A stretch of 64,000 bases of DNA from Gemmatimonadetes bacterium T265 (GTDB lineage Bacteria > Gemmatimonadota > Gemmatimonadetes > Gemmatimonadales > Gemmatimonadaceae): assembly GCA_019973575.1 (NCBI GenBank), contig BPUI01000005.1, positions 1 through 64,000 of the forward strand, in the 5' to 3' direction. This document shows, piece by piece, positions 18,796-27,339 of this stretch (positions are counted from its first letter, which is position 1; the number at the start of each line of letters is the position of its first letter). The notes under the pieces were generated by a model. It was not told the origin of the DNA, ran no database searches, and saw only the letters and a list, made by a program, of their open reading frames with translations. Made by a program: the position numbers and the translations under genes.

Positions 18796-19024
18796 CGGTG
18801 ACCGGTGTTCGTGTGCGACCGGGATCTCTGCTCAGGGATGCGGCACGAGCGTTCGTGCTCGGCGGCATTGACCCCCACCGTCCCAGCCACGCCGGAGCAT
18901 GCGGCGTGGTCGATCTGCTCGCACCGCGCGACCGACCCGTGCCGCCTGGCGGCAGCGTGCCCATGGCCCAGCAATCGGCCGGTAAGCGACATCGCGACCG
19001 CCAGCGCCCGCTGCTCGGGCACAA

Positions 19025-20152
19025 TCAGGCGTACCACGCGCGGCCGCGGCGCCTGCCGCCTCGCGATTGCGCACGTCCCGAAGACGCCGCGGGTCTGCGG
19101 CCCAGTTCGCCGGCCATCGCCGTGAGCAGCATGTGCGGCGCCGTGAGCGCCGCGAGCCCGGCGAAGAGCACCTGGACGGCGACCGCTGCTCCCGTGTGGG
19201 GCCGCGACGTGCGCGACAACCCGACCCATGCGGCGCTCGCCAGTGCGAGCGTCGCGGCAGTCGCGGGTAGGGCCGCGCCGACGAAGCAGGTCCACGCCCG
19301 GCCAGGACGTCTGGGATCGAGCACGGCCGCGAGTTCGAGCGCATGCCGGGCGGAGTGGAGCAGGCAGAAGTAGACGAGGAACGCGAGCAGCGGCGGGAGC
19401 ACCGCGGCAACCGCCGGGACCACGAGGCACTCGACGGCGGCGCTCCGGTGGGCGACCGCGCGCGCCGTAGCCGTGGCATCGGCGTGCCATGCGCCGTCGC
19501 CCGCCGCCGCCCTCAGGTGAGCGCCGGCGAACAGTGCGCACCCTGGAAGCACGAGCCAGCGCGCGCACCACGCACACCCCGCAACGATAACCGCGAGGGC
19601 CGGCATGGACGCACCCGGCGCGACCCACCCAAACGCCTGCCGAACCGCATCGGCGTGGGCCAGACTCGGCACGGCAATCGGCGCTGCACCGCGGACCAGG
19701 ATTTCGGCCCAGGCGAGCCCGCTGCGCGCGCCCGGCGGATCGACGTCGCCCAAGCCGAAGTGGACCGCTGAGGCGGCGAGGAAGGCCGCGAGCGTAACCA
19801 CCGGGACGTACACCCACCCTGCGACGACCACCGCCGCGAGCAACACGTACCCGATGTAGAATGGCGCCCACCAGCGGCGGCCGAGTTGCGGCGCGAGCCA
19901 GCGCCGTCCGACGAGTGCGTCGAGCGCGCCGTGCGGCACGCCGAACACGGCGACCGCGACGACGAGCGCCGCGACCTGGACGGCCAGGGACGGCTGCACG
20001 GCGGCGGGGATGCGGCGCGCGCACAGCAGCGCCGCGCAGAGTACCACCAGCGCGCCCCGGACGTGCCCGGCGCGCCAGCGCGGAAGCCACCCGTCCCCGT
20101 CGGCCACGACGATGGGCGCGACCGCGACCGCAGGCACGGCGGCGCTCGTCAC
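19025..20152 (-). CDS. blh: Brp/Blh-family beta-carotene 15,15'-dioxygenase
   Basis: 375 aa, eight or so membrane helices. Conserved iron-binding histidine motifs are present: 'VFGVPHGALDALVG', 'ASAVHFGLGD', 'CLLHSARHALEL' and 'LTAPHMLLTAMAG'. Brp/Blh enzymes cleave beta-carotene into two retinal molecules at the membrane, supplying the chromophore for rhodopsin. The GTG start at 20152 lies 10 bases after the crtY stop, and rhodopsin is the gene before crtY, so the order rhodopsin-crtY-blh forms a retinal-supply operon. Upstream carotenoid genes (crtE, crtB, crtI) are not in this window. Confidence 0.88.
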   Translation of the reverse strand: MTSAAVPAVAVAPIVVADGDGWLPRWRAGHVRGALVVLCAALLCARRIPAAVQPSLAVQVAALVVAVAVFGVPHGALDALVGRRWLAPQLGRRWWAPFYIGYVLLAAVVVAGWVYVPVVTLAAFLAASAVHFGLGDVDPPGARSGLAWAEILVRGAAPIAVPSLAHADAVRQAFGWVAPGASMPALAVIVAGCAWCARWLVLPGCALFAGAHLRAAAGDGAWHADATATARAVAHRSAAVECLVVPAVAAVLPPLLAFLVYFCLLHSARHALELAAVLDPRRPGRAWTCFVGAALPATAATLALASAAWVGLSRTSRPHTGAAVAVQVLFAGLAALTAPHMLLTAMAGELGRRPAASSGRAQSRGGRRRGRAWYA

Positions 20153-20162
20153 GGGGCCGCCA

Positions 20163-21344
20163 TCACGTCGTGTCCACGCGTGCCGCCCCGAGTCGCCACG
20201 CCTCGGTGACGAACGGCCAGGGCGGCAGGGCGGCGACGACGCGGGCCGCGTCGCGGTACGATCCAACGTCCGACAGGAAGCGCACGAGTGCGTCGGCGTC
20301 GGCCGCCGCGAACAGACGGGCGAACAGCGCCGGTGCCGCGGCGGGGTCCGCGCGCAATCGCCGAAGGAACACGTGGTCGAGCCAGCGCGCCACCGGGCTG
20401 CGCGGCGGCGGGAGCGGCGCGACGGCACCCGTCGCGCCGGCGAGCGACCGCGCGATCGCGGCCGCGTCGCGCTGGATGGCGAGAAAGGCGTAGCCCGTCG
20501 ACGGCTTCGCCAACCCGCCGGCAACGCCGAGACGTGTCACCCGCGCCGACGGGCGCCGGAGTACCGCGGCGGCGTCCATCGGGATCAGCCCGGCTTCGCG
20601 CGAGCGGACGGTGTGGGCGCCGTCGGTAAGCCGAGCGGTGTAGCGCACGAGGGCGGCGTCGAGCACGGCGGGCGCGGGCGGATGCTCGGCGATCACGGCC
20701 AGCTCGACGAGGGCGTCGCGGGGCGAGTAGGGGAGGACGTAACCGAAGGCGAACCCGTCGACCGGTTGGTCGACGGTGAAATCCATGAGCGTCGCCGTGC
20801 TGGCGTCGAACGCGGGCGCGGGCGTGCGAATGACGGCGCCCGAGAATGCCTGAACGAGGCGCGCCGCAGCCCGCCGGCTCCGGGGCTGATCGGCGCCGTC
20901 GCTGGCGAGGAGCGGCCGACTGTCGAAGACGTGGGCGGCACGCAGCACACCGCGTGTCGTGTGGACCCGAACGCAGGCACCGGCGTCGGCGATCGCCTGG
21001 ACCGGTTCGCCGAGCCGGAGCTCGACGTGCGGGGCGGCGGCGATCCGCGCGAGCGCGTCGGCGTAGAACGCGTCGGCGGGAATGTGCTGGTACGTGTAGC
21101 ATCCGGAGGTACGGACCACGTCGGTGCCGTCGCGTCCGGTCACGCGCCATCGCGCCCACCGGTGGGTGACCGCGGTCGCGGCCGCGTGCGGATGCACGTC
21201 CCAAAAGCACCAGGTGCGGTCGCGGCCGAACGTCGTGCGCGCATCGACGACGACCACGCGCCCGATCTGCGGGCCCGCGTCGGCGAGGCGCGCGGCGAGG
21301 CTCAGCCCCGCGCACCCCGCGCCGACGATCAGGTGATCGATGAT
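20163..21344 (-). CDS. crtY: Lycopene beta-cyclase (CrtY type); non-canonical start
   Basis: About 393 aa. The N-terminal FAD dinucleotide motif 'HLIVGAGCAGLSLAARLAD', then 'RTWCFWDVHPHA', 'LMDFTVDQPVDGFAFGYVLPYS' and 'GVAGGLAKPSTGYAFLAIQRDAAAIARSL' identify a CrtY-type lycopene cyclase, which closes both ends of lycopene to give beta-carotene, the substrate of Blh. There is no ATG, GTG or TTG at the expected N-terminus. The natural beginning (I-I-D-H-L-I-V-G) starts with ATC codons at 21344/21341, right after the rhodopsin TAG (21353-21355). The frame stays open far upstream, overlapping rhodopsin in the -1 frame. Coordinates use ATC 21344 as a provisional start. Confidence 0.85.
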   Translation of the reverse strand: MIDHLIVGAGCAGLSLAARLADAGPQIGRVVVVDARTTFGRDRTWCFWDVHPHAAATAVTHRWARWRVTGRDGTDVVRTSGCYTYQHIPADAFYADALARIAAAPHVELRLGEPVQAIADAGACVRVHTTRGVLRAAHVFDSRPLLASDGADQPRSRRAAARLVQAFSGAVIRTPAPAFDASTATLMDFTVDQPVDGFAFGYVLPYSPRDALVELAVIAEHPPAPAVLDAALVRYTARLTDGAHTVRSREAGLIPMDAAAVLRRPSARVTRLGVAGGLAKPSTGYAFLAIQRDAAAIARSLAGATGAVAPLPPPRSPVARWLDHVFLRRLRADPAAAPALFARLFAAADADALVRFLSDVGSYRDAARVVAALPPWPFVTEAWRLGAARVDTT

Positions 21345-21352
21345 CGGGCCGC

Positions 21353-22114
21353 CTACGCGGCGCGGTCGGCAGGCACCGAAGCGATCGGCTCGACGACGGG
21401 GCGGTAATGGGCCGCGTGCGGCTCGAGCTGCGTGCTGCCGGCCAACGTGATGAAGCCGTAGCCCACCTTCGCGATGATGTCGAACACCATGTACAGCAGC
21501 GCGGCCGTGGGTGCTTCGTAGAGACGGAAGCCGGACGGCGCACCGAGCCAGATGAGCGGGTACGCGAGCCAGAGCACGGACAGCAGGGTCGCGTTGCGCG
21601 TGAACACCGCGCCCACGGTCGGCGTGCGTTGGCCGGTGGCCTCGCGGCGCAACGGGCCCCAGACGAGCGTGTACACGGCGACCTGGAACGTGCAGCTGAC
21701 GATGTACCACGCCACCTTGGCGCCCTGCACGTGCGAGAGCGTGGCGGCGAGGCCGGTGAGCATGATCGCGACGTCGGCGAGCAGCAGTCCGACGACGAGC
21801 GCGCTGCGGCGGCGCAGCGCACCGAGCGCGGTGGTCGACAGGCCGAGCAGCAGGAGCGGCGTCGTAATCGACCAGTCGACGAACCGGGCGACGTAGAGGT
21901 GGCGGGACTCCGCCGGGATCTCGACCCGCGTCTGGTCCATCGCCATCATTAGGTAGAAGATGGCCGCGGTGAAGCAGACGAAAATGTGGTACACGTGGTG
22001 CGGCTCGGAGTCGCGCGACTTGCCGCGCGCGCGCAGCACCATGGCGATCGCGCCGAGCGCGAGCACGACCATCCCGACCCAGTACCACTGCCGCTCACTG
22101 CCGTACGGATCCAT
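21353..22114 (-). CDS. Light-driven proton-pump rhodopsin, DTG motif
   Basis: 253 aa, seven helices. Helix C reads 'ARFVDWSITTPLLLLGLS': R77, D80 (Schiff-base counterion/acceptor), T84 and G91 at the cytoplasmic proton-donor position, i.e. motif D-T-G. Helix F has 'WLAYPLIWLG' (W182, Y185, P186, W189). Helix G has 'FDIIAKVGYG' with D212 and the retinal-binding K216. The helix C residue equivalent to the proteorhodopsin colour switch is Leu, usually meaning green absorption. Helix B opens with three histidines (H39, H40, H43), of interest because DTG/DTS pumps are reported to use a helix B His at the donor side. ATG 22114 has 'aggagcaggag' upstream. First gene of rhodopsin-crtY-blh. Confidence 0.93.
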   Translation of the reverse strand: MDPYGSERQWYWVGMVVLALGAIAMVLRARGKSRDSEPHHVYHIFVCFTAAIFYLMMAMDQTRVEIPAESRHLYVARFVDWSITTPLLLLGLSTTALGALRRRSALVVGLLLADVAIMLTGLAATLSHVQGAKVAWYIVSCTFQVAVYTLVWGPLRREATGQRTPTVGAVFTRNATLLSVLWLAYPLIWLGAPSGFRLYEAPTAALLYMVFDIIAKVGYGFITLAGSTQLEPHAAHYRPVVEPIASVPADRAA

Positions 22115-22213
22115 CGCGGTCTCCTGCTCCTCGGTGTCGGTTGGCCCGGCGCGTGCGACGCGGCGCGCCCCGCGCGCGACCGCGGCGTGTTCGCGACGCC
22201 GCGCGCGGGCGAT

Positions 22214-22255
22214 CCATCGGCGACGCCGGTTCTGCCATGACCGGCTGGCATATCG
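22214..22255 (-). repeat. 42-base upstream element, copy 1
   Basis: Read on the plus strand it contains 'gccggttctgccatgaccg'; the partner at 52441-52482 contains 'gccggttccgccatgaccg'. By hand 35 of 42 bases match without gaps. Both copies lie roughly 90-100 bases upstream of a minus-strand start codon (rhodopsin, second PQQ dehydrogenase), and both have ClC coding sequence on their other side. Either a shared control element or a remnant of block duplication. Confidence 0.6.
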
Positions 22256-22264
22256 TAGCTCCAA

Positions 22265-22300
22265 CGACGACATTGCGGGGGAGCCCCCGCAATGTCGTCG
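22265..22300. repeat. Perfect 17-base inverted repeat
   Basis: CGACGACATTGCGGGGG and CCCCCGCAATGTCGTCG separated by two bases. As RNA it would form a very stable hairpin on either strand. Lying between divergent genes, it cannot terminate either of them in the usual way, so operator, attenuator or recombination hot spot are the open possibilities. Confidence 0.65.
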
Positions 22301-22479
22301 CACGTCTCGCGCTCCGCGTTCGCGGACACCCCGAACCCGTCGCGTTCGCCACGACCGTCGCGGCGCATTTTCGACGTCATCCGCACCCTTGCAATGCACC
22401 GGGCCCGCTGCGTGTTCCTCCCCCAGATTATCCCCCCGATAGCCGGGCCGGCGCCGGTCGGCGGCGCCACGGGAACCCG

Positions 22480-24285
22480 GTGACCGCGGCACCGCGACCA
22501 CTGGCCCCGCCGGCGTGGACGCGGTGGAGCGCGCGCGTGATCGAGTTGGTCGAGGACGTGCGACGGCATGAGGACCGCCTGGCTCTGCTCCTCAGCCTGC
22601 TCGTCGGCGCCCTCGTCAGCCTCGTCGTCGTCGCGTTCGTCCTCCTGACCGGGCGCCTCGCGGCGCACATGTACCCAGCCGGCGGCGCCGGCTGGCGCCG
22701 CGTCCTCGTGCCGACGTTCGGCGCGCTCGTTTCCGGGATCCTGCTCTTTCGCTTCTTCCCCGACGCCCGGGGCAGCGGCATCCCGCAGACCCGGGCCGCG
22801 ATTTTCATCCACGACGGCCGGATCACCTTCAAGACGGTGGCCGGAAAGTTCGTGTGCTGCGGGATCGCGCTCGCCAGCGGCATCGCCCTCGGACGCGAAG
22901 GACCCTCCGTGCACATCGGGTCCGGCATCGCGTCCGTCATCGGACGGCGGCTCGGCCTGAGCAGCGCGCAGGTCCGCTGGCTCATCCCCGTGGGCGCATC
23001 GGCCGCCCTCGCCGCGGCGTTCAACACGCCGATCGCGGCCGTGCTGTTCTCGCTCGAGGAGATCATCGGCGACCTGCACGCTCCGATCCTCGGCTCGGTC
23101 GTGCTCAGCGCGACGACCTCGTGGCTCGTGCTGCACCTCGTGCTCGGCGACGAGCCGCTGTTTCACGTCGCCGGCTACCACCTCGTCGCCCCGTCCGAGC
23201 TCCTCGTCTACGCGGTGCTCGGGATCGTGGGTGGCCTGGTGTCGGTCGGCTTCGTGAAGCTCCTACTCGGCCTCCGCGTGCGCTTCGCCCGCCTGCCCGC
23301 GCGGACGCGCTGGCTCCAGCCGGTGGCGGGCGGCCTCACGGTCGGCGTGCTCGGGTACTTCGTGCCCGCCGTGCTCGGCGTCGGCTACGACCGGGTCGAT
23401 CAGGCGCTGAGTGGCGAACTGGTGCTCAAGCTCGTGCTGGTGCTCGCGGTCTTGAAGATCGTGGCGACGGCTGTCTGCTACGCCTCCGGCAACGCCGGCG
23501 GCATCTTCGGGCCGAGCATGTTCATCGGCGCGATGATCGGGGCCGGGGTGGGGCGCATCGCCGAGCACGTCGCGCCCGGCGCGACGGCGGGTCCGGGCGC
23601 CTACGCGCTCGTCGGCATGGGGACCGCGTTCGCGGGGATCATTCGCACGCCGCTGACCTCGGTAATCATGATCTTCGAGGTCACGCGGGACTACACGATC
23701 ATCGTCCCGCTGATGATCTCCAACCTTACCGCGTTCTACATCTCGCAGAAGCTGCAGCCCGAGCCGATCTACGAGGCGCTTGCCCGGCAGGACGGGATGC
23801 ACCTGCCGACCGGCGCGTTCCGGCAGCTGGCCGGCCGCCTGCGCGTGAGCACCGCGCTCCGGGCGGCGCCCCCGCCCCTCGCGCACGACCTGTCGGTGGC
23901 CGAGGCGCAACGGCAGATGAACGGCGCCGAGTTCGAATCCTGGCCGGTGGTCGACGCGAACGGGCTGGTGGGTATGGTGCGCGCGCGGGACGTCACGCGC
24001 GCCGCGACGGGGGGCCGTGACGGGACGCGCGTGCAGGACCTGCTCGACGCCGCGGCCGCCGGGCACGGCGACGCCGAGGCCCTGCCGTACGTGCACGGCG
24101 ACCAGCCGCTCGGACAGGCGCTCGCCCGGATGGGCGCGACCCGCCATACCGTGTTGCCCGTCGTCAGCCGTGCGAACGTGCGCACCCTCCTGGGCATCGT
24201 CACCCTCGCGGACGTGCTGGCGGCGTACGGGGTCGAGCGGGTCGGGGACATCCCCGACGCCGAGATGGTGGCGCACGATGGCTAA
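22480..24285 (+). CDS. ClC-family chloride/proton exchanger with CBS domains
   Basis: 601 aa from GTG 22480. The ClC signature elements are intact: selectivity filter 'GSGIP' (98-102), 'GREGPSVHIGSG' with gating Glu140, and 'FNTPIAAVLFSLEEIIGDL' whose Glu194 matches the internal proton glutamate of ClC-ec1 (E203). Both glutamates suggest a Cl-/H+ exchanger rather than a channel. Two CBS-like motifs follow (about 470-595, 'SWPVVDANGLVGMVRARDV' and 'HTVLPVVSRANVRTLLGIVTLADVL'). It diverges from the rhodopsin and overlaps the next gene by 8 bases. A truncated relative of its 5' end lies at 52991-53140. Confidence 0.92.
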   Translation: MTAAPRPLAPPAWTRWSARVIELVEDVRRHEDRLALLLSLLVGALVSLVVVAFVLLTGRLAAHMYPAGGAGWRRVLVPTFGALVSGILLFRFFPDARGSGIPQTRAAIFIHDGRITFKTVAGKFVCCGIALASGIALGREGPSVHIGSGIASVIGRRLGLSSAQVRWLIPVGASAALAAAFNTPIAAVLFSLEEIIGDLHAPILGSVVLSATTSWLVLHLVLGDEPLFHVAGYHLVAPSELLVYAVLGIVGGLVSVGFVKLLLGLRVRFARLPARTRWLQPVAGGLTVGVLGYFVPAVLGVGYDRVDQALSGELVLKLVLVLAVLKIVATAVCYASGNAGGIFGPSMFIGAMIGAGVGRIAEHVAPGATAGPGAYALVGMGTAFAGIIRTPLTSVIMIFEVTRDYTIIVPLMISNLTAFYISQKLQPEPIYEALARQDGMHLPTGAFRQLAGRLRVSTALRAAPPPLAHDLSVAEAQRQMNGAEFESWPVVDANGLVGMVRARDVTRAATGGRDGTRVQDLLDAAAAGHGDAEALPYVHGDQPLGQALARMGATRHTVLPVVSRANVRTLLGIVTLADVLAAYGVERVGDIPDAEMVAHDG

Positions 24286-25503: not shown

Positions 25504-27339
25504 CTATCCGCCCGCACCCGGACCGCCGTCCGATTCGTGACCCGACACGGCACGCGCGTACCGCGCGAGCACGCCCGTGCGGTACACCACTCCCACGAGC
25601 CGGCCTGACTCCGGGGCGACCACAGGTAGTGCGCTCGCGCCGCGAATTCCCATGCGTCGAATGGCGGTGAGCAGCGAATCTCGGGGTGCCACCGTTTCGG
25701 TGGGTTGCACCAAGTCGCGGGCGACGCGCACGGTGTCGCCCGGGTGCTCGGTGCGTGCGGCCACACCGAGGTCTGTGGTCGTCACAACGCCCAGGAGGCG
25801 TCCGTGCGCGTCGATCACGGGGAAGACCGTCTGGTGTGGATCGGCACGATGCCGGAGGACTGAAGCGACGGGTTCGGCCGCATCGAGCACCACCGCGTGA
25901 GGCGCACACGCGTCGGCCACGCGCAGTCCGGCGAGGATGACGCGGTCGGCGCCGTGCTCCAGGCGCTCGCCGCGGCGGCGCAACCAGCCGGAATAGAGGG
26001 TCTCGCCGGCCAGGGCGCGCGTCACCCCGTGGCTGAGCGCGACGGCAATCAGCAGCGGCACCACAAGCGCGGGATCCTTCGTCATTTCGAATACGAGCAG
26101 GACACCCGTGATCGGCGCCCCCGTCGCCCCCGCGACCACCGCGCCCATACCGACCAGCACGTACCACTCGGGCGAGATGGCGAGGGCCGGCAGCAGCGCG
26201 CGCAGCACGACCCCGAGCGCGCCGCCGGTCGCGGCACCGACGAAGAGGGACGGCGCGAGCAGTCCGCCAGAGCCGCCACCCTGGAGGGTGACCGCGGTCG
26301 CGACGATTTTCCCGACGGCGAGGAGCAGCAGCGTCCACCAGGCCATGCGGCCGAACGTGGCGAACGGGATCGCGAGGTGCCCGGCCCCGACCAGTCGGCC
26401 GCCGGAGGCGAACACCAGCACGCCGACGAGCGCGCCGGCTGCCCAGGGGAGCAGCGCGGGCAGGCGTCGGTGGCGCGCGCCTAACACCAGGCGGGCGTAC
26501 GCGAACCCCTGACCGACGCCGAAGTACACGCGCACGAAGAGGGCCGATACGAGCCCGCAGAGCACGCCGAGGAGCGGCACGCATGCGACCACCTCGACGA
26601 GCGCGGCGCGACCGACGTCGTGCGGAACCAACAACGCCGGATGATTTCCGAACACCGCGCGCGACACGACCGCGCCGACCACGCTCGCGAGCACGATGGG
26701 CGCGAACGCGGTCGCCTGGAACGAGCCGACGACGGCTTCGAGCGCGAAGAAGGCGCCGGCGAGCGGCGTGTCGAACGCCGCGGCGATTCCGGCTCCCGCG
26801 CCGGCGCCGACGAGGACGCGCGCGCCCTCGGGCGAGAGTTGGAAGGCGCGCGCGAGCAGCGAGCCGGCTGCGGCACCGAGCACCGCGACCGGGCCGTCGC
26901 TCCCGGCCGAGCCGCCGCCCCCGACGGTGATCGCGGCCGCGAGCGTGCGGCCCGCTGCCCGTCCCGTCGGGACCACCCCCTCGCGACGGACGACGGCAAG
27001 CTGCACGTCGGGGACGGTGAGGCCGTCGCGCCCGCGACCGACGCGGCGCCAGACGAACGCTGCCACGGCGACCGCGGTCCCGGTGACGAGCGAGCGGGAG
27101 GCGAGCTGCTGCGCCGGTGAGAAGCCGTCGCCTGTCCACGCGAGGACGACGCGAGCGGCGACGTCGACCGCGTCAGCGAAGAGCACGGCGCCACCCGCGG
27201 CGACGAGCGCCACGGCGATGGCGACCACGAACACCGTCGCGGGCTCGTGCGGGCTCAGCCCGCGAACGGCGGACCGCGCACGGTCCCAGCGCGTCACCGA
27301 GGGCGTCCCCGGGCGACGGCGAGCCGGACCTCCACCCAC
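25504..27339 (-). CDS. Divergent ClC-family protein with CBS pair
   Basis: 611 aa from GTG 27339; GTG at 27297 (VTRWDRARS) is an alternative start. The ClC fold is recognisable ('GGGGSAGSDGPVAVLGAAAGS', 'FDTPLAGAFFALEAVVGSF', 'GGGSGGLLAPSLFVGAATGGALG', 'LVGMGAVVAGATGAPITGVLLVFEMTKD') and a CBS pair ends the chain ('TVFPVIDAHGRLLGVVTTTDLG'). Key residues differ from canonical members: the gating Glu of G-R-E-G-P is Asp148 in G-S-D-G-P, the proton Glu equivalent is Ala202, and the GSGIP filter is not evident. It may therefore not be a standard Cl-/H+ exchanger. It converges with the TPR gene. Confidence 0.88.
   Translation of the reverse strand: MGGGPARRRPGTPSVTRWDRARSAVRGLSPHEPATVFVVAIAVALVAAGGAVLFADAVDVAARVVLAWTGDGFSPAQQLASRSLVTGTAVAVAAFVWRRVGRGRDGLTVPDVQLAVVRREGVVPTGRAAGRTLAAAITVGGGGSAGSDGPVAVLGAAAGSLLARAFQLSPEGARVLVGAGAGAGIAAAFDTPLAGAFFALEAVVGSFQATAFAPIVLASVVGAVVSRAVFGNHPALLVPHDVGRAALVEVVACVPLLGVLCGLVSALFVRVYFGVGQGFAYARLVLGARHRRLPALLPWAAGALVGVLVFASGGRLVGAGHLAIPFATFGRMAWWTLLLLAVGKIVATAVTLQGGGSGGLLAPSLFVGAATGGALGVVLRALLPALAISPEWYVLVGMGAVVAGATGAPITGVLLVFEMTKDPALVVPLLIAVALSHGVTRALAGETLYSGWLRRRGERLEHGADRVILAGLRVADACAPHAVVLDAAEPVASVLRHRADPHQTVFPVIDAHGRLLGVVTTTDLGVAARTEHPGDTVRVARDLVQPTETVAPRDSLLTAIRRMGIRGASALPVVAPESGRLVGVVYRTGVLARYARAVSGHESDGGPGAGG

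What the first reader, a model, noticed from the sequence alone, without database searches (positions are those of the whole stretch)
21353..22114. Proton-donor position is glycine (DTG motif) with a histidine trio in helix B
Helix C reads D80-T84-G91, so the carboxylic proton donor of bacteriorhodopsin (D96) or proteorhodopsin (E108) is missing. DTG/DTS rhodopsins have been described as proton pumps with an alternative cytoplasmic donor arrangement involving a helix B histidine. Here helix B opens with H39, H40 and H43. The protein may extend that small group to a new lineage.
Basis: partly seen in the sequence, partly recalled or inferred. Interest (0 to 1): 0.72.

Follow-up and report, generated by a model that had tools for sequence, protein, structure and literature searches.

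The report
Histidine-donor rhodopsin in soil bacterium
This is a light-absorbing membrane protein, probably a light-driven proton pump, that lacks the usual acidic proton donor and probably uses one buried histidine instead; it is a deep new branch of a known family, found in a bacterial group where this type does not seem to have been reported.

Summary
A 253-residue type-1 rhodopsin is encoded on the minus strand (22114..21353) with D80-T84-G91, K216, D212, and H39, H40, H43. H43, and only H43, aligns with Thr46 of bacteriorhodopsin, the site of H37 in SpaR and of the matching His in PspR. That His is present in 35 of 36 other rows of one supported superclade (95/89 with the trait columns removed); the exception is the TTG rhodopsin 8xx8. 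H40 is Tyr in a paralog in the same genome. The 'trio' is therefore one donor candidate (H43), one plausible relay (H39) and one unconserved residue (H40). The protein belongs to neither named DTG clade (mirror proteorhodopsins; MpR-like), although AU tests do not exclude either. The genome is in Gemmatimonadaceae and carries two rhodopsin-crtY-blh cassettes, DTG (window) and DTA (paralog). The window copy has Ser where 35 of 36 superclade rows have Asp or Glu (bacteriorhodopsin E194); the paralog has Glu. Best reading: an outward proton pump reprotonated through H43, probably best at acid pH. Pumping is inferred, not shown. New member of a known kind; moderate interest.

The parts
21353..22114 (-). 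Type-1 microbial rhodopsin, 253 aa, motif D80-T84-G91 (DTG)
   Evidence: AlphaFold2 mean pLDDT 93.6, seven helices
21986..21988 (-). Codon of H43, position of bacteriorhodopsin T46 and SpaR H37: candidate cytoplasmic proton donor
21998..22000 (-). Codon of H39, one turn cytoplasmic of H43; kept in the paralog; possible proton relay
21995..21997 (-). Codon of H40; Tyr in the paralog, His in none of 36 superclade rows; probably not part of the donor
21875..21877 (-). Codon of D80, primary proton acceptor position (bacteriorhodopsin D85)
21842..21844 (-). Codon of G91, at the position of the carboxylic donor D96; Ala in the paralog
21533..21535 (-). Codon of S194, at bacteriorhodopsin E194 (proton release); Glu in the paralog, Asp/Glu in 35 of 36 superclade rows
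21467..21469 (-). Codon of K216, retinal Schiff-base lysine (DIIAK, with D212)
20163..21353 (-). Lycopene cyclase CrtY (PF05834), directly downstream; exact start codon not determined
19025..20149 (-). Brp/Blh beta-carotene 15,15'-dioxygenase (PF15461), makes retinal; start approximate

Best explanation
A retinal-binding, light-driven outward proton pump. Shown from sequence: Schiff-base lysine K216, counterions D80 and D212, no carboxylate at the usual donor site (G91), a histidine at the bacteriorhodopsin T46 site (H43), and genes for beta-carotene cyclisation and retinal cleavage next to it. Inferred: light isomerises retinal; the Schiff-base proton goes to D80 and out; the Schiff base is reprotonated through H43, with H39 as a relay from the cytoplasm. 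A donor of histidine pKa would make the pump work best at acid to neutral pH, as proposed for SpaR. Release cannot use the usual Glu194/Glu204 pair, since the window copy has S194 and A204.
For: H43 aligns with SpaR H37 and the PspR (7w74) His in the multiple alignment and in all pairwise alignments tried with those two. Column 43 is His in 35 of 36 other superclade rows; the single exception (Gln) is 8xx8, which has also swapped the acceptor Asp for Thr. No row with His at 43 has a carboxylate at 91 (0 of 61 rows). The superclade holding the window pair has support 95/89 with columns 39, 40, 43 and 91 removed; 93/85 with fewer outgroups. Solved structures of SpaR and of the P. putida DTG rhodopsin match the predicted model. 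SpaR was shown to pump protons at acid pH and its authors propose H37 as donor (PMC10154332, sections 10 and 11 and passages). CyR-II P7104R, a proton pump, has Ser at D96, a His42 that may hydrogen-bond to it, and Lys at E194 (PMC11528372 passages), so both departures are compatible with pumping. The cassette has crtY and blh, and 58 of 87 loci have a blh match in the held DNA. Purifying selection between the paralogs: dN 0.15, dS 0.51.
Against: No functional data. AU tests reject none of the alternatives: with mirror proteorhodopsins p 0.36, with MpR-like p 0.20, with xenorhodopsins p 0.27, with the Solirubrobacterales group p 0.32, with CyR-II p 0.19. A relative with the same motif is reported to pump Na+/Li+ (MpR, as cited in PMC10154332). 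The window copy lacks the E194 carboxylate that 35 of 36 superclade rows keep, and lacks SpaR E92 (A99). The link of His43 with loss of the carboxylate could not be tested on independent lineages: only 2 independent pairs, sign test p 1. No atomic coordinates were available to measure distances.
Confidence: 0.66

Rival explanations
1. A slow-cycling light sensor or very weak pump: without a carboxylic donor and without E194/E204, the window copy has become a photosensor or regulator while the paralog remains the pump.
For: Ser194, Ala204 and Ala99 in the window copy where the paralog has Glu; ASR, a sensor, also has Ser at the E194 column and a non-carboxylic D96 site; the AU test does not exclude the xenorhodopsin/ASR clade (p 0.27).
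Against: D212 is kept (Pro in ASR and in the xenorhodopsin rows whose helix G was read); no transducer or soluble signalling gene in the cassette, which is rhodopsin-crtY-blh; dN/dS about 0.3 shows constraint but does not separate the roles.
Confidence: 0.17
2. A light-driven Na+/Li+ pump like the one reported for MpR of Methylobacterium populi.
For: MpR-like proteins share DTG and the His at column 43, and the HMM of that clade scores the window higher than the mirror-proteorhodopsin HMM (191.7 against 140.8 bits); AU p 0.20.
Against: MpR-like proteins share acidic residues at the positions of window 36, 37 and 39 (PMC10154332); the window has S36, E37, H39, one of three. The MpR-like rows form their own clade without the window (96/91, 96/94). 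The Na+ claim rests on one paper that I did not read.
Confidence: 0.1
3. A chloride-handling rhodopsin, given the 8xx8 kin and the ClC genes beside it.
For: 8xx8, titled Glycilhalorhodopsin, is the best PDB match by sequence and fold; a ClC gene is divergently placed at 22141-24285.
Against: The acceptor is D80, not Thr/Asn; 8xx8 has Thr there and Gln at 43. The neighbourhood differs at the paralog, where a Crp-like regulator lies upstream.
Confidence: 0.03

Closest known systems
PspR (Pseudomonas putida, PDB 7w74) and SpaR (Sphingomonas paucimobilis, PDB 8anq), the mirror proteorhodopsins
   Same: D-T-G/S in helix C, His at bacteriorhodopsin T46 (H43 here), a second His one turn before it, blh next door in relatives
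   Different: 33-36% identity; no SpaR E92, E189, S121 or S199 equivalents (A99, S194, T125, A204); outside their 100/100 clade
MpR-like DTG/DTS rhodopsins of Methylobacterium and Acetobacteraceae (reported Li+/Na+ pump MpR)
   Same: DTG/DTS/DTA/DTT with the same His
   Different: lacks two of the three acidic residues of that clade; outside its 96/91 clade
8xx8, Glycilhalorhodopsin of Salinarimonas soli
   Same: best PDB match by sequence (38% identity over the alignment) and by fold, Z 33.7, rmsd 3.0 over 236; Gly at the D96 site
   Different: Thr in place of D80 and Gln in place of H43
CyR-II P7104R of Nodosilinea nodulosa (PDB 8h79)
   Same: His at column 43, no carboxylate at the D96 site, no Glu at E194, Phe then Glu/Gln in helix E
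   Different: placed apart in the tree; AU p 0.19, so a common clade is not excluded

Membership tests
Type-1 microbial rhodopsin (PF01036) | Seven helices, profile match over cut-off, Schiff-base Lys in helix G | tested here: met
   142.8 bits against a cut-off of 24.6; seven helices, pLDDT 93.6; K216
DTG-motif rhodopsins with helix-B His | Asp, Thr, Gly at D85, T89, D96 | tested here: met
   D80, T84, G91
DTG-motif rhodopsins with helix-B His | His at bacteriorhodopsin T46 | tested here: met
   H43
DTG-motif rhodopsins with helix-B His | Common clade with PspR and SpaR | tested here: inconclusive
   34-row superclade 95/89 with trait columns removed, 93/85; but AU tests of rival placements outside it are not significant
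DTG-motif rhodopsins with helix-B His | Light-driven outward proton transport | not testable with these tools
   needs expression
Mirror proteorhodopsins (SpaR-like) | Paired H32 H33 before H37 | tested here: inconclusive
   multiple alignment: H39 = H33 and P38 = H32; pairwise SpaR alignment: H39 H40 = H32 H33 with a gap before H43
Mirror proteorhodopsins (SpaR-like) | S121 and S199 on the extracellular side | tested here: not met
   T125 and A204
Mirror proteorhodopsins (SpaR-like) | Inside the SpaR-like clade | tested here: inconclusive
   outside a 100/100 clade, but joining it is not rejected, AU p 0.36
MpR-like DTG/DTS rhodopsins | Acidic residues at MpR 32, 33 and 35 | tested here: not met
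   S36, E37, H39: one of three
MpR-like DTG/DTS rhodopsins | Inside the MpR-like clade | tested here: inconclusive
   outside a 96/91 clade; AU p 0.20
Xenorhodopsin / Anabaena sensory rhodopsin | Pro in place of D212 | tested here: not met
   D212 present
Chloride-pumping rhodopsins | No Asp at the D85 position | tested here: not met
   D80 present
Xanthorhodopsin-type carotenoid antenna | Gly at the fenestration site in helix E (site recalled, not from a call) | tested here: not met
   Y137 in the column of SpaR Y133

The most novel reading that the evidence does not exclude
The genome holds a natural split pair: the paralog (DTA, with E99, E194, E204) as a pump with an acidic release group, and the window copy (DTG, with A99, S194, A204) in which the His pair H39/H43 is the main titratable cytoplasmic group and the release carboxylates are gone. 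The window copy would be a minimal His-only proton pump, or a converted photosensor, working at a different pH or speed from its partner.
Probability: 0.25. Interest if true: 0.6.

Novelty: new member of a known kind. Interest (0 to 1): 0.42.

Why it matters
How a rhodopsin reprotonates its Schiff base without a carboxylic donor is still an open mechanism; SpaR's authors only suggest H37. A deep branch that keeps this His while lacking the E92 and E194 equivalents is a clean test of which residues the mechanism needs, and its paralog in the same cell is a ready-made comparison. It also adds Gemmatimonadota to the carriers of this rhodopsin type.

Tried and rejected
Early in the work I aligned helix B on another stretch and concluded that F45, not H43, stood at T46 (noted). 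The multiple alignment, anchored on Y54 and V46 and checked with AR2 and other carboxylic-donor pumps, showed this was wrong; note 2 corrects it.

Test of coupling between His43 and loss of the D96 carboxylate: perfect exclusion in the sample (0 of 61), but only 2 independent pairs on the tree, so no statistical support. The sample was drawn by similarity to the window, so it cannot show how general this is.

AU tests of five alternative placements were all not significant, so the exact sister group is open. Clade HMM scores for the window favour the Aureimonas/Sphingomonas BN140010 group (199.8) and MpR-like (191.7) over xenorhodopsins (178.3), Acidobacteria (169.5), Solirubrobacterales (160.9) and mirror proteorhodopsins (140.8); these are not normalised for model length or number of rows.

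Paper searches: nothing for a rhodopsin 'TTG motif' or 'glycylhalorhodopsin' (the PDB title spells it Glycilhalorhodopsin, a spelling I did not search); the search for Salinarimonas soli listed 10 of 1,329 papers, none holding that name. No promoter or terminator consensus was found in 18800-22500, which says little in a G+C-rich non-model genome.

Rows dropped before counts: of 312 relatives found only the best 80 were returned. One search uses 95 rows: window, paralog, L003, L004, L006, six plasmid loci, 80 loci and four PDB chains; some are near-identical. Trees: L004 (broken gene) and rows over 90% identical to a kept row dropped, 64 rows left; L042 and L087 also dropped (62 rows); six MpR-like rows dropped and four PDB chains added (60 rows). 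The structure alignment used 45 of the 80 loci; L076 was dropped because its range held a stop; the paralog was not included.

Full report
WHAT IS THERE. The finding's coordinates hold one intact gene on the minus strand, 22114 to 21353, ATG to TAG, 253 residues. It is a type-1 rhodopsin (PF01036, 142.8 bits). The predicted structure has seven helices with mean pLDDT 93.6. Its best PDB matches are rhodopsins: by Foldseek, 8xx8 (Glycilhalorhodopsin of Salinarimonas soli), then SpaR 8anq and 6kfq, with the P. putida DTG rhodopsin 7w74 at rank 9; by VIA-align 2, 8xx8_C Z 33.7 (rmsd 3.0 over 236), 6kfq Z 33.3 (1.5 over 229), 8anq_B Z 32.9 (1.5 over 225) and 7w74_A Z 31.9 (1.4 over 222). Such fold matches do not separate pumps from sensors: sensory rhodopsin II entries score about 32 as well.

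THE MOTIF. Helix C has D80, T84 and G91; helix G has D212 and K216. In an alignment with archaerhodopsin-2, a Haloplanus rhodopsin and 6kfq, the columns of window H43 and G91 hold Thr and Asp in all three, which fixes H43 at bacteriorhodopsin T46 and G91 at D96. PMC10154332 (passages and sections 10 and 11 read) states that SpaR H37 is at the T46 position, and H43 aligns with H37 of SpaR and with the matching His of the 7w74 chain in every alignment made with them. H39 and H43 are four residues apart, and Y54 (bacteriorhodopsin Y57) is eleven after H43, so by helix geometry all three face the same side, towards the retinal, while H40 points about 60 degrees off. This last step is inference from helical periodicity; I had no coordinates.

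THE TRIO. H43 is His in 35 of 36 other members of the superclade, H39 in 17 of 36, H40 in none of 36. The paralog in the same genome reads EPHYVYH: H39 and H43 kept, H40 replaced by Tyr. The exact partner of H39 and H40 in SpaR depends on the alignment (H33/T34 in the multiple alignment; H32/H33 with a gap in the pairwise one). Only H43 is robust.

CONSERVATION OF THE DONOR HIS. Of 95 rows, 61 have His at column 43, and none of the 61 has Asp or Glu at the D96 site; of the other 34, six do. Among 51 DTG rows 13 have Ser at column 43; these are the Solirubrobacterales group. So DTG by itself does not predict the His. In the superclade the one member without His is 8xx8, which also lost the acceptor Asp (TTG). 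This fits a His that belongs to proton transfer, but the tree offers only two independent pairs and the sign test has no power.

PLACE IN THE FAMILY. The nearest of the 80 relatives kept, out of 312 matches in one genome per species, are at most 44% identical over the matched stretch, about 40% in the alignment. The window and its paralog form a 100/100 pair on a long stem (1.26 to 1.43 changes per column). With columns 39, 40, 43 and 91 removed, so that the trait cannot create the result, they fall in a superclade with the mirror proteorhodopsins, the MpR-like clade, Acidobacteria DTS rhodopsins, Aureimonas/Sphingomonas BN140010, Lichenibacterium ramalinae and 8xx8, supported 93/85 and 95/89 with more outgroups. 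They lie outside the SpaR-like clade (100/100) and the MpR-like clade (96/91). Against this, AU tests reject none of the alternatives tried: with SpaR-like p 0.36, with MpR-like p 0.20, with xenorhodopsins p 0.27, with Solirubrobacterales p 0.32, with CyR-II p 0.19. The superclade is therefore moderately supported and the sister group open.

THE ORGANISM. The window's genome (5.63 Mb, 6 contigs) is placed by the search tool in one family with handle G016. A 6,001-base stretch of Gemmatirosa kalamazoonensis plasmid 1 matches G016 at 100%, and a match reaches base 1106233 of that contig, the length of the plasmid record. So the family is Gemmatimonadaceae. Of 179 genomes of the family, 9 have any PF01036 match; apart from the window's genome those I could read were six genomes with proteorhodopsin-type DTE genes and one with a broken xenorhodopsin-like gene, and the ninth holds a short fragment not classified. 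With the window protein as query at E 1e-10, 1 of 395 phylum genomes matched, its own. PMC10581226 (passages read) calls rhodopsins very rare in Gemmatimonadota and lists only proteorhodopsins in five genomes and xanthorhodopsin in three. My searches for Gemmatimonadota, Gemmatimonadetes or Gemmatimonadaceae with rhodopsin terms listed no report of a DTG rhodopsin there; subscription journals are mostly not held.

TWO CASSETTES. The window gene is followed by lycopene cyclase CrtY and a Brp/Blh beta-carotene dioxygenase on the same strand. The paralog on contig 1 has the same order, rhodopsin, CrtY, Blh, with a Crp-like regulator upstream and flagellin genes beyond. The rhodopsins are 76% identical, the CrtY proteins about 72%. 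dN 0.15 and dS 0.51 between the rhodopsins give about 0.30, so both have been under purifying selection. The genome also holds two PF00494 (phytoene/squalene synthase family) matches. A blh match occurs in 58 of 87 loci examined, with the length of flank varying.

THE PARALOGS DIFFER AT TITRATABLE SITES. At column 194 the window has Ser, the paralog Glu, and 35 of 36 superclade rows Asp or Glu. PMC11528372 gives Lys193 of P7104R as the replacement of bacteriorhodopsin Glu194, and that Lys is in this column, which fixes the site. At 204 (bacteriorhodopsin E204 by recall of its sequence) the window has Ala and the paralog Glu; at 99 (SpaR E92) Ala and Glu. At the D96 site the window has Gly and the paralog Ala. 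Both have Q144 where 36 of 36 superclade rows have Phe; CyR-II has Glu144 there, near the retinal, so colour tuning may differ. The window copy is thus poorer in acidic groups on both sides.

MECHANISM. Most likely (0.66) an outward proton pump: D80 accepts the Schiff-base proton, H43 with or without H39 returns one from the cytoplasm, and release uses neither E194 nor E204. By analogy with SpaR, which pumps at acid pH and whose authors suggest but do not prove H37 as donor (section 11 lists H37 mutants without stating their outcome), I expect best activity at acid to neutral pH. P7104R shows that a proton pump can lack both the D96 carboxylate and E194. Rivals are a sensor or weak pump (0.17), a Na+/Li+ pump (0.10) and a chloride-handling protein (0.03). 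Harris 2015 and Cho 2021 I did not read; they are cited through PMC10154332. Of PMC7541481, PMC7979833, PMC9601134, PMC11006869 and PMC8547001 I saw passages only.

VERDICT. A real, correctly described feature. It extends the His-donor type of rhodopsin to a deep new lineage in Gemmatimonadaceae, in two copies. New member of a known kind, with a useful natural pair for testing the mechanism.

Noticed in passing
window 22265-22300: A perfect 17-base inverted repeat with a 2-base spacer (CGACGACATTGCGGGGG) lies upstream of the rhodopsin in the gap towards the divergent ClC gene; its core occurs once in the genome, and no such repeat was found in the 400 bases around the paralog's start.
   Followed up: partly
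window 22141-24285 (+) and 25504-27339 (-): Two ClC chloride channel/transporter genes with CBS domains lie close together beside the rhodopsin cassette.
   Followed up: no
L096 6928-11086 (G000 contig 1): Second rhodopsin-crtY-blh cassette with a DTA rhodopsin and a divergent Crp-like regulator.
   Followed up: yes
L016-L018, L020, L024, L026, L028, L031, L034, L035, L039, L040, L075: A Solirubrobacterales group of DTG rhodopsins has Ser, not His, at the T46 site but His-His four to five residues earlier; its donor arrangement must differ.
   Followed up: partly
L039: A MAG titled Bifidobacterium breve carries a rhodopsin that nests inside the Solirubrobacterales group, so the title or the bin is probably wrong.
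   Followed up: no
L021 and L023: Aureimonas leprariae carries two DTG rhodopsins on one contig, each with a blh match downstream, a second case of two copies in this superclade.
   Followed up: no
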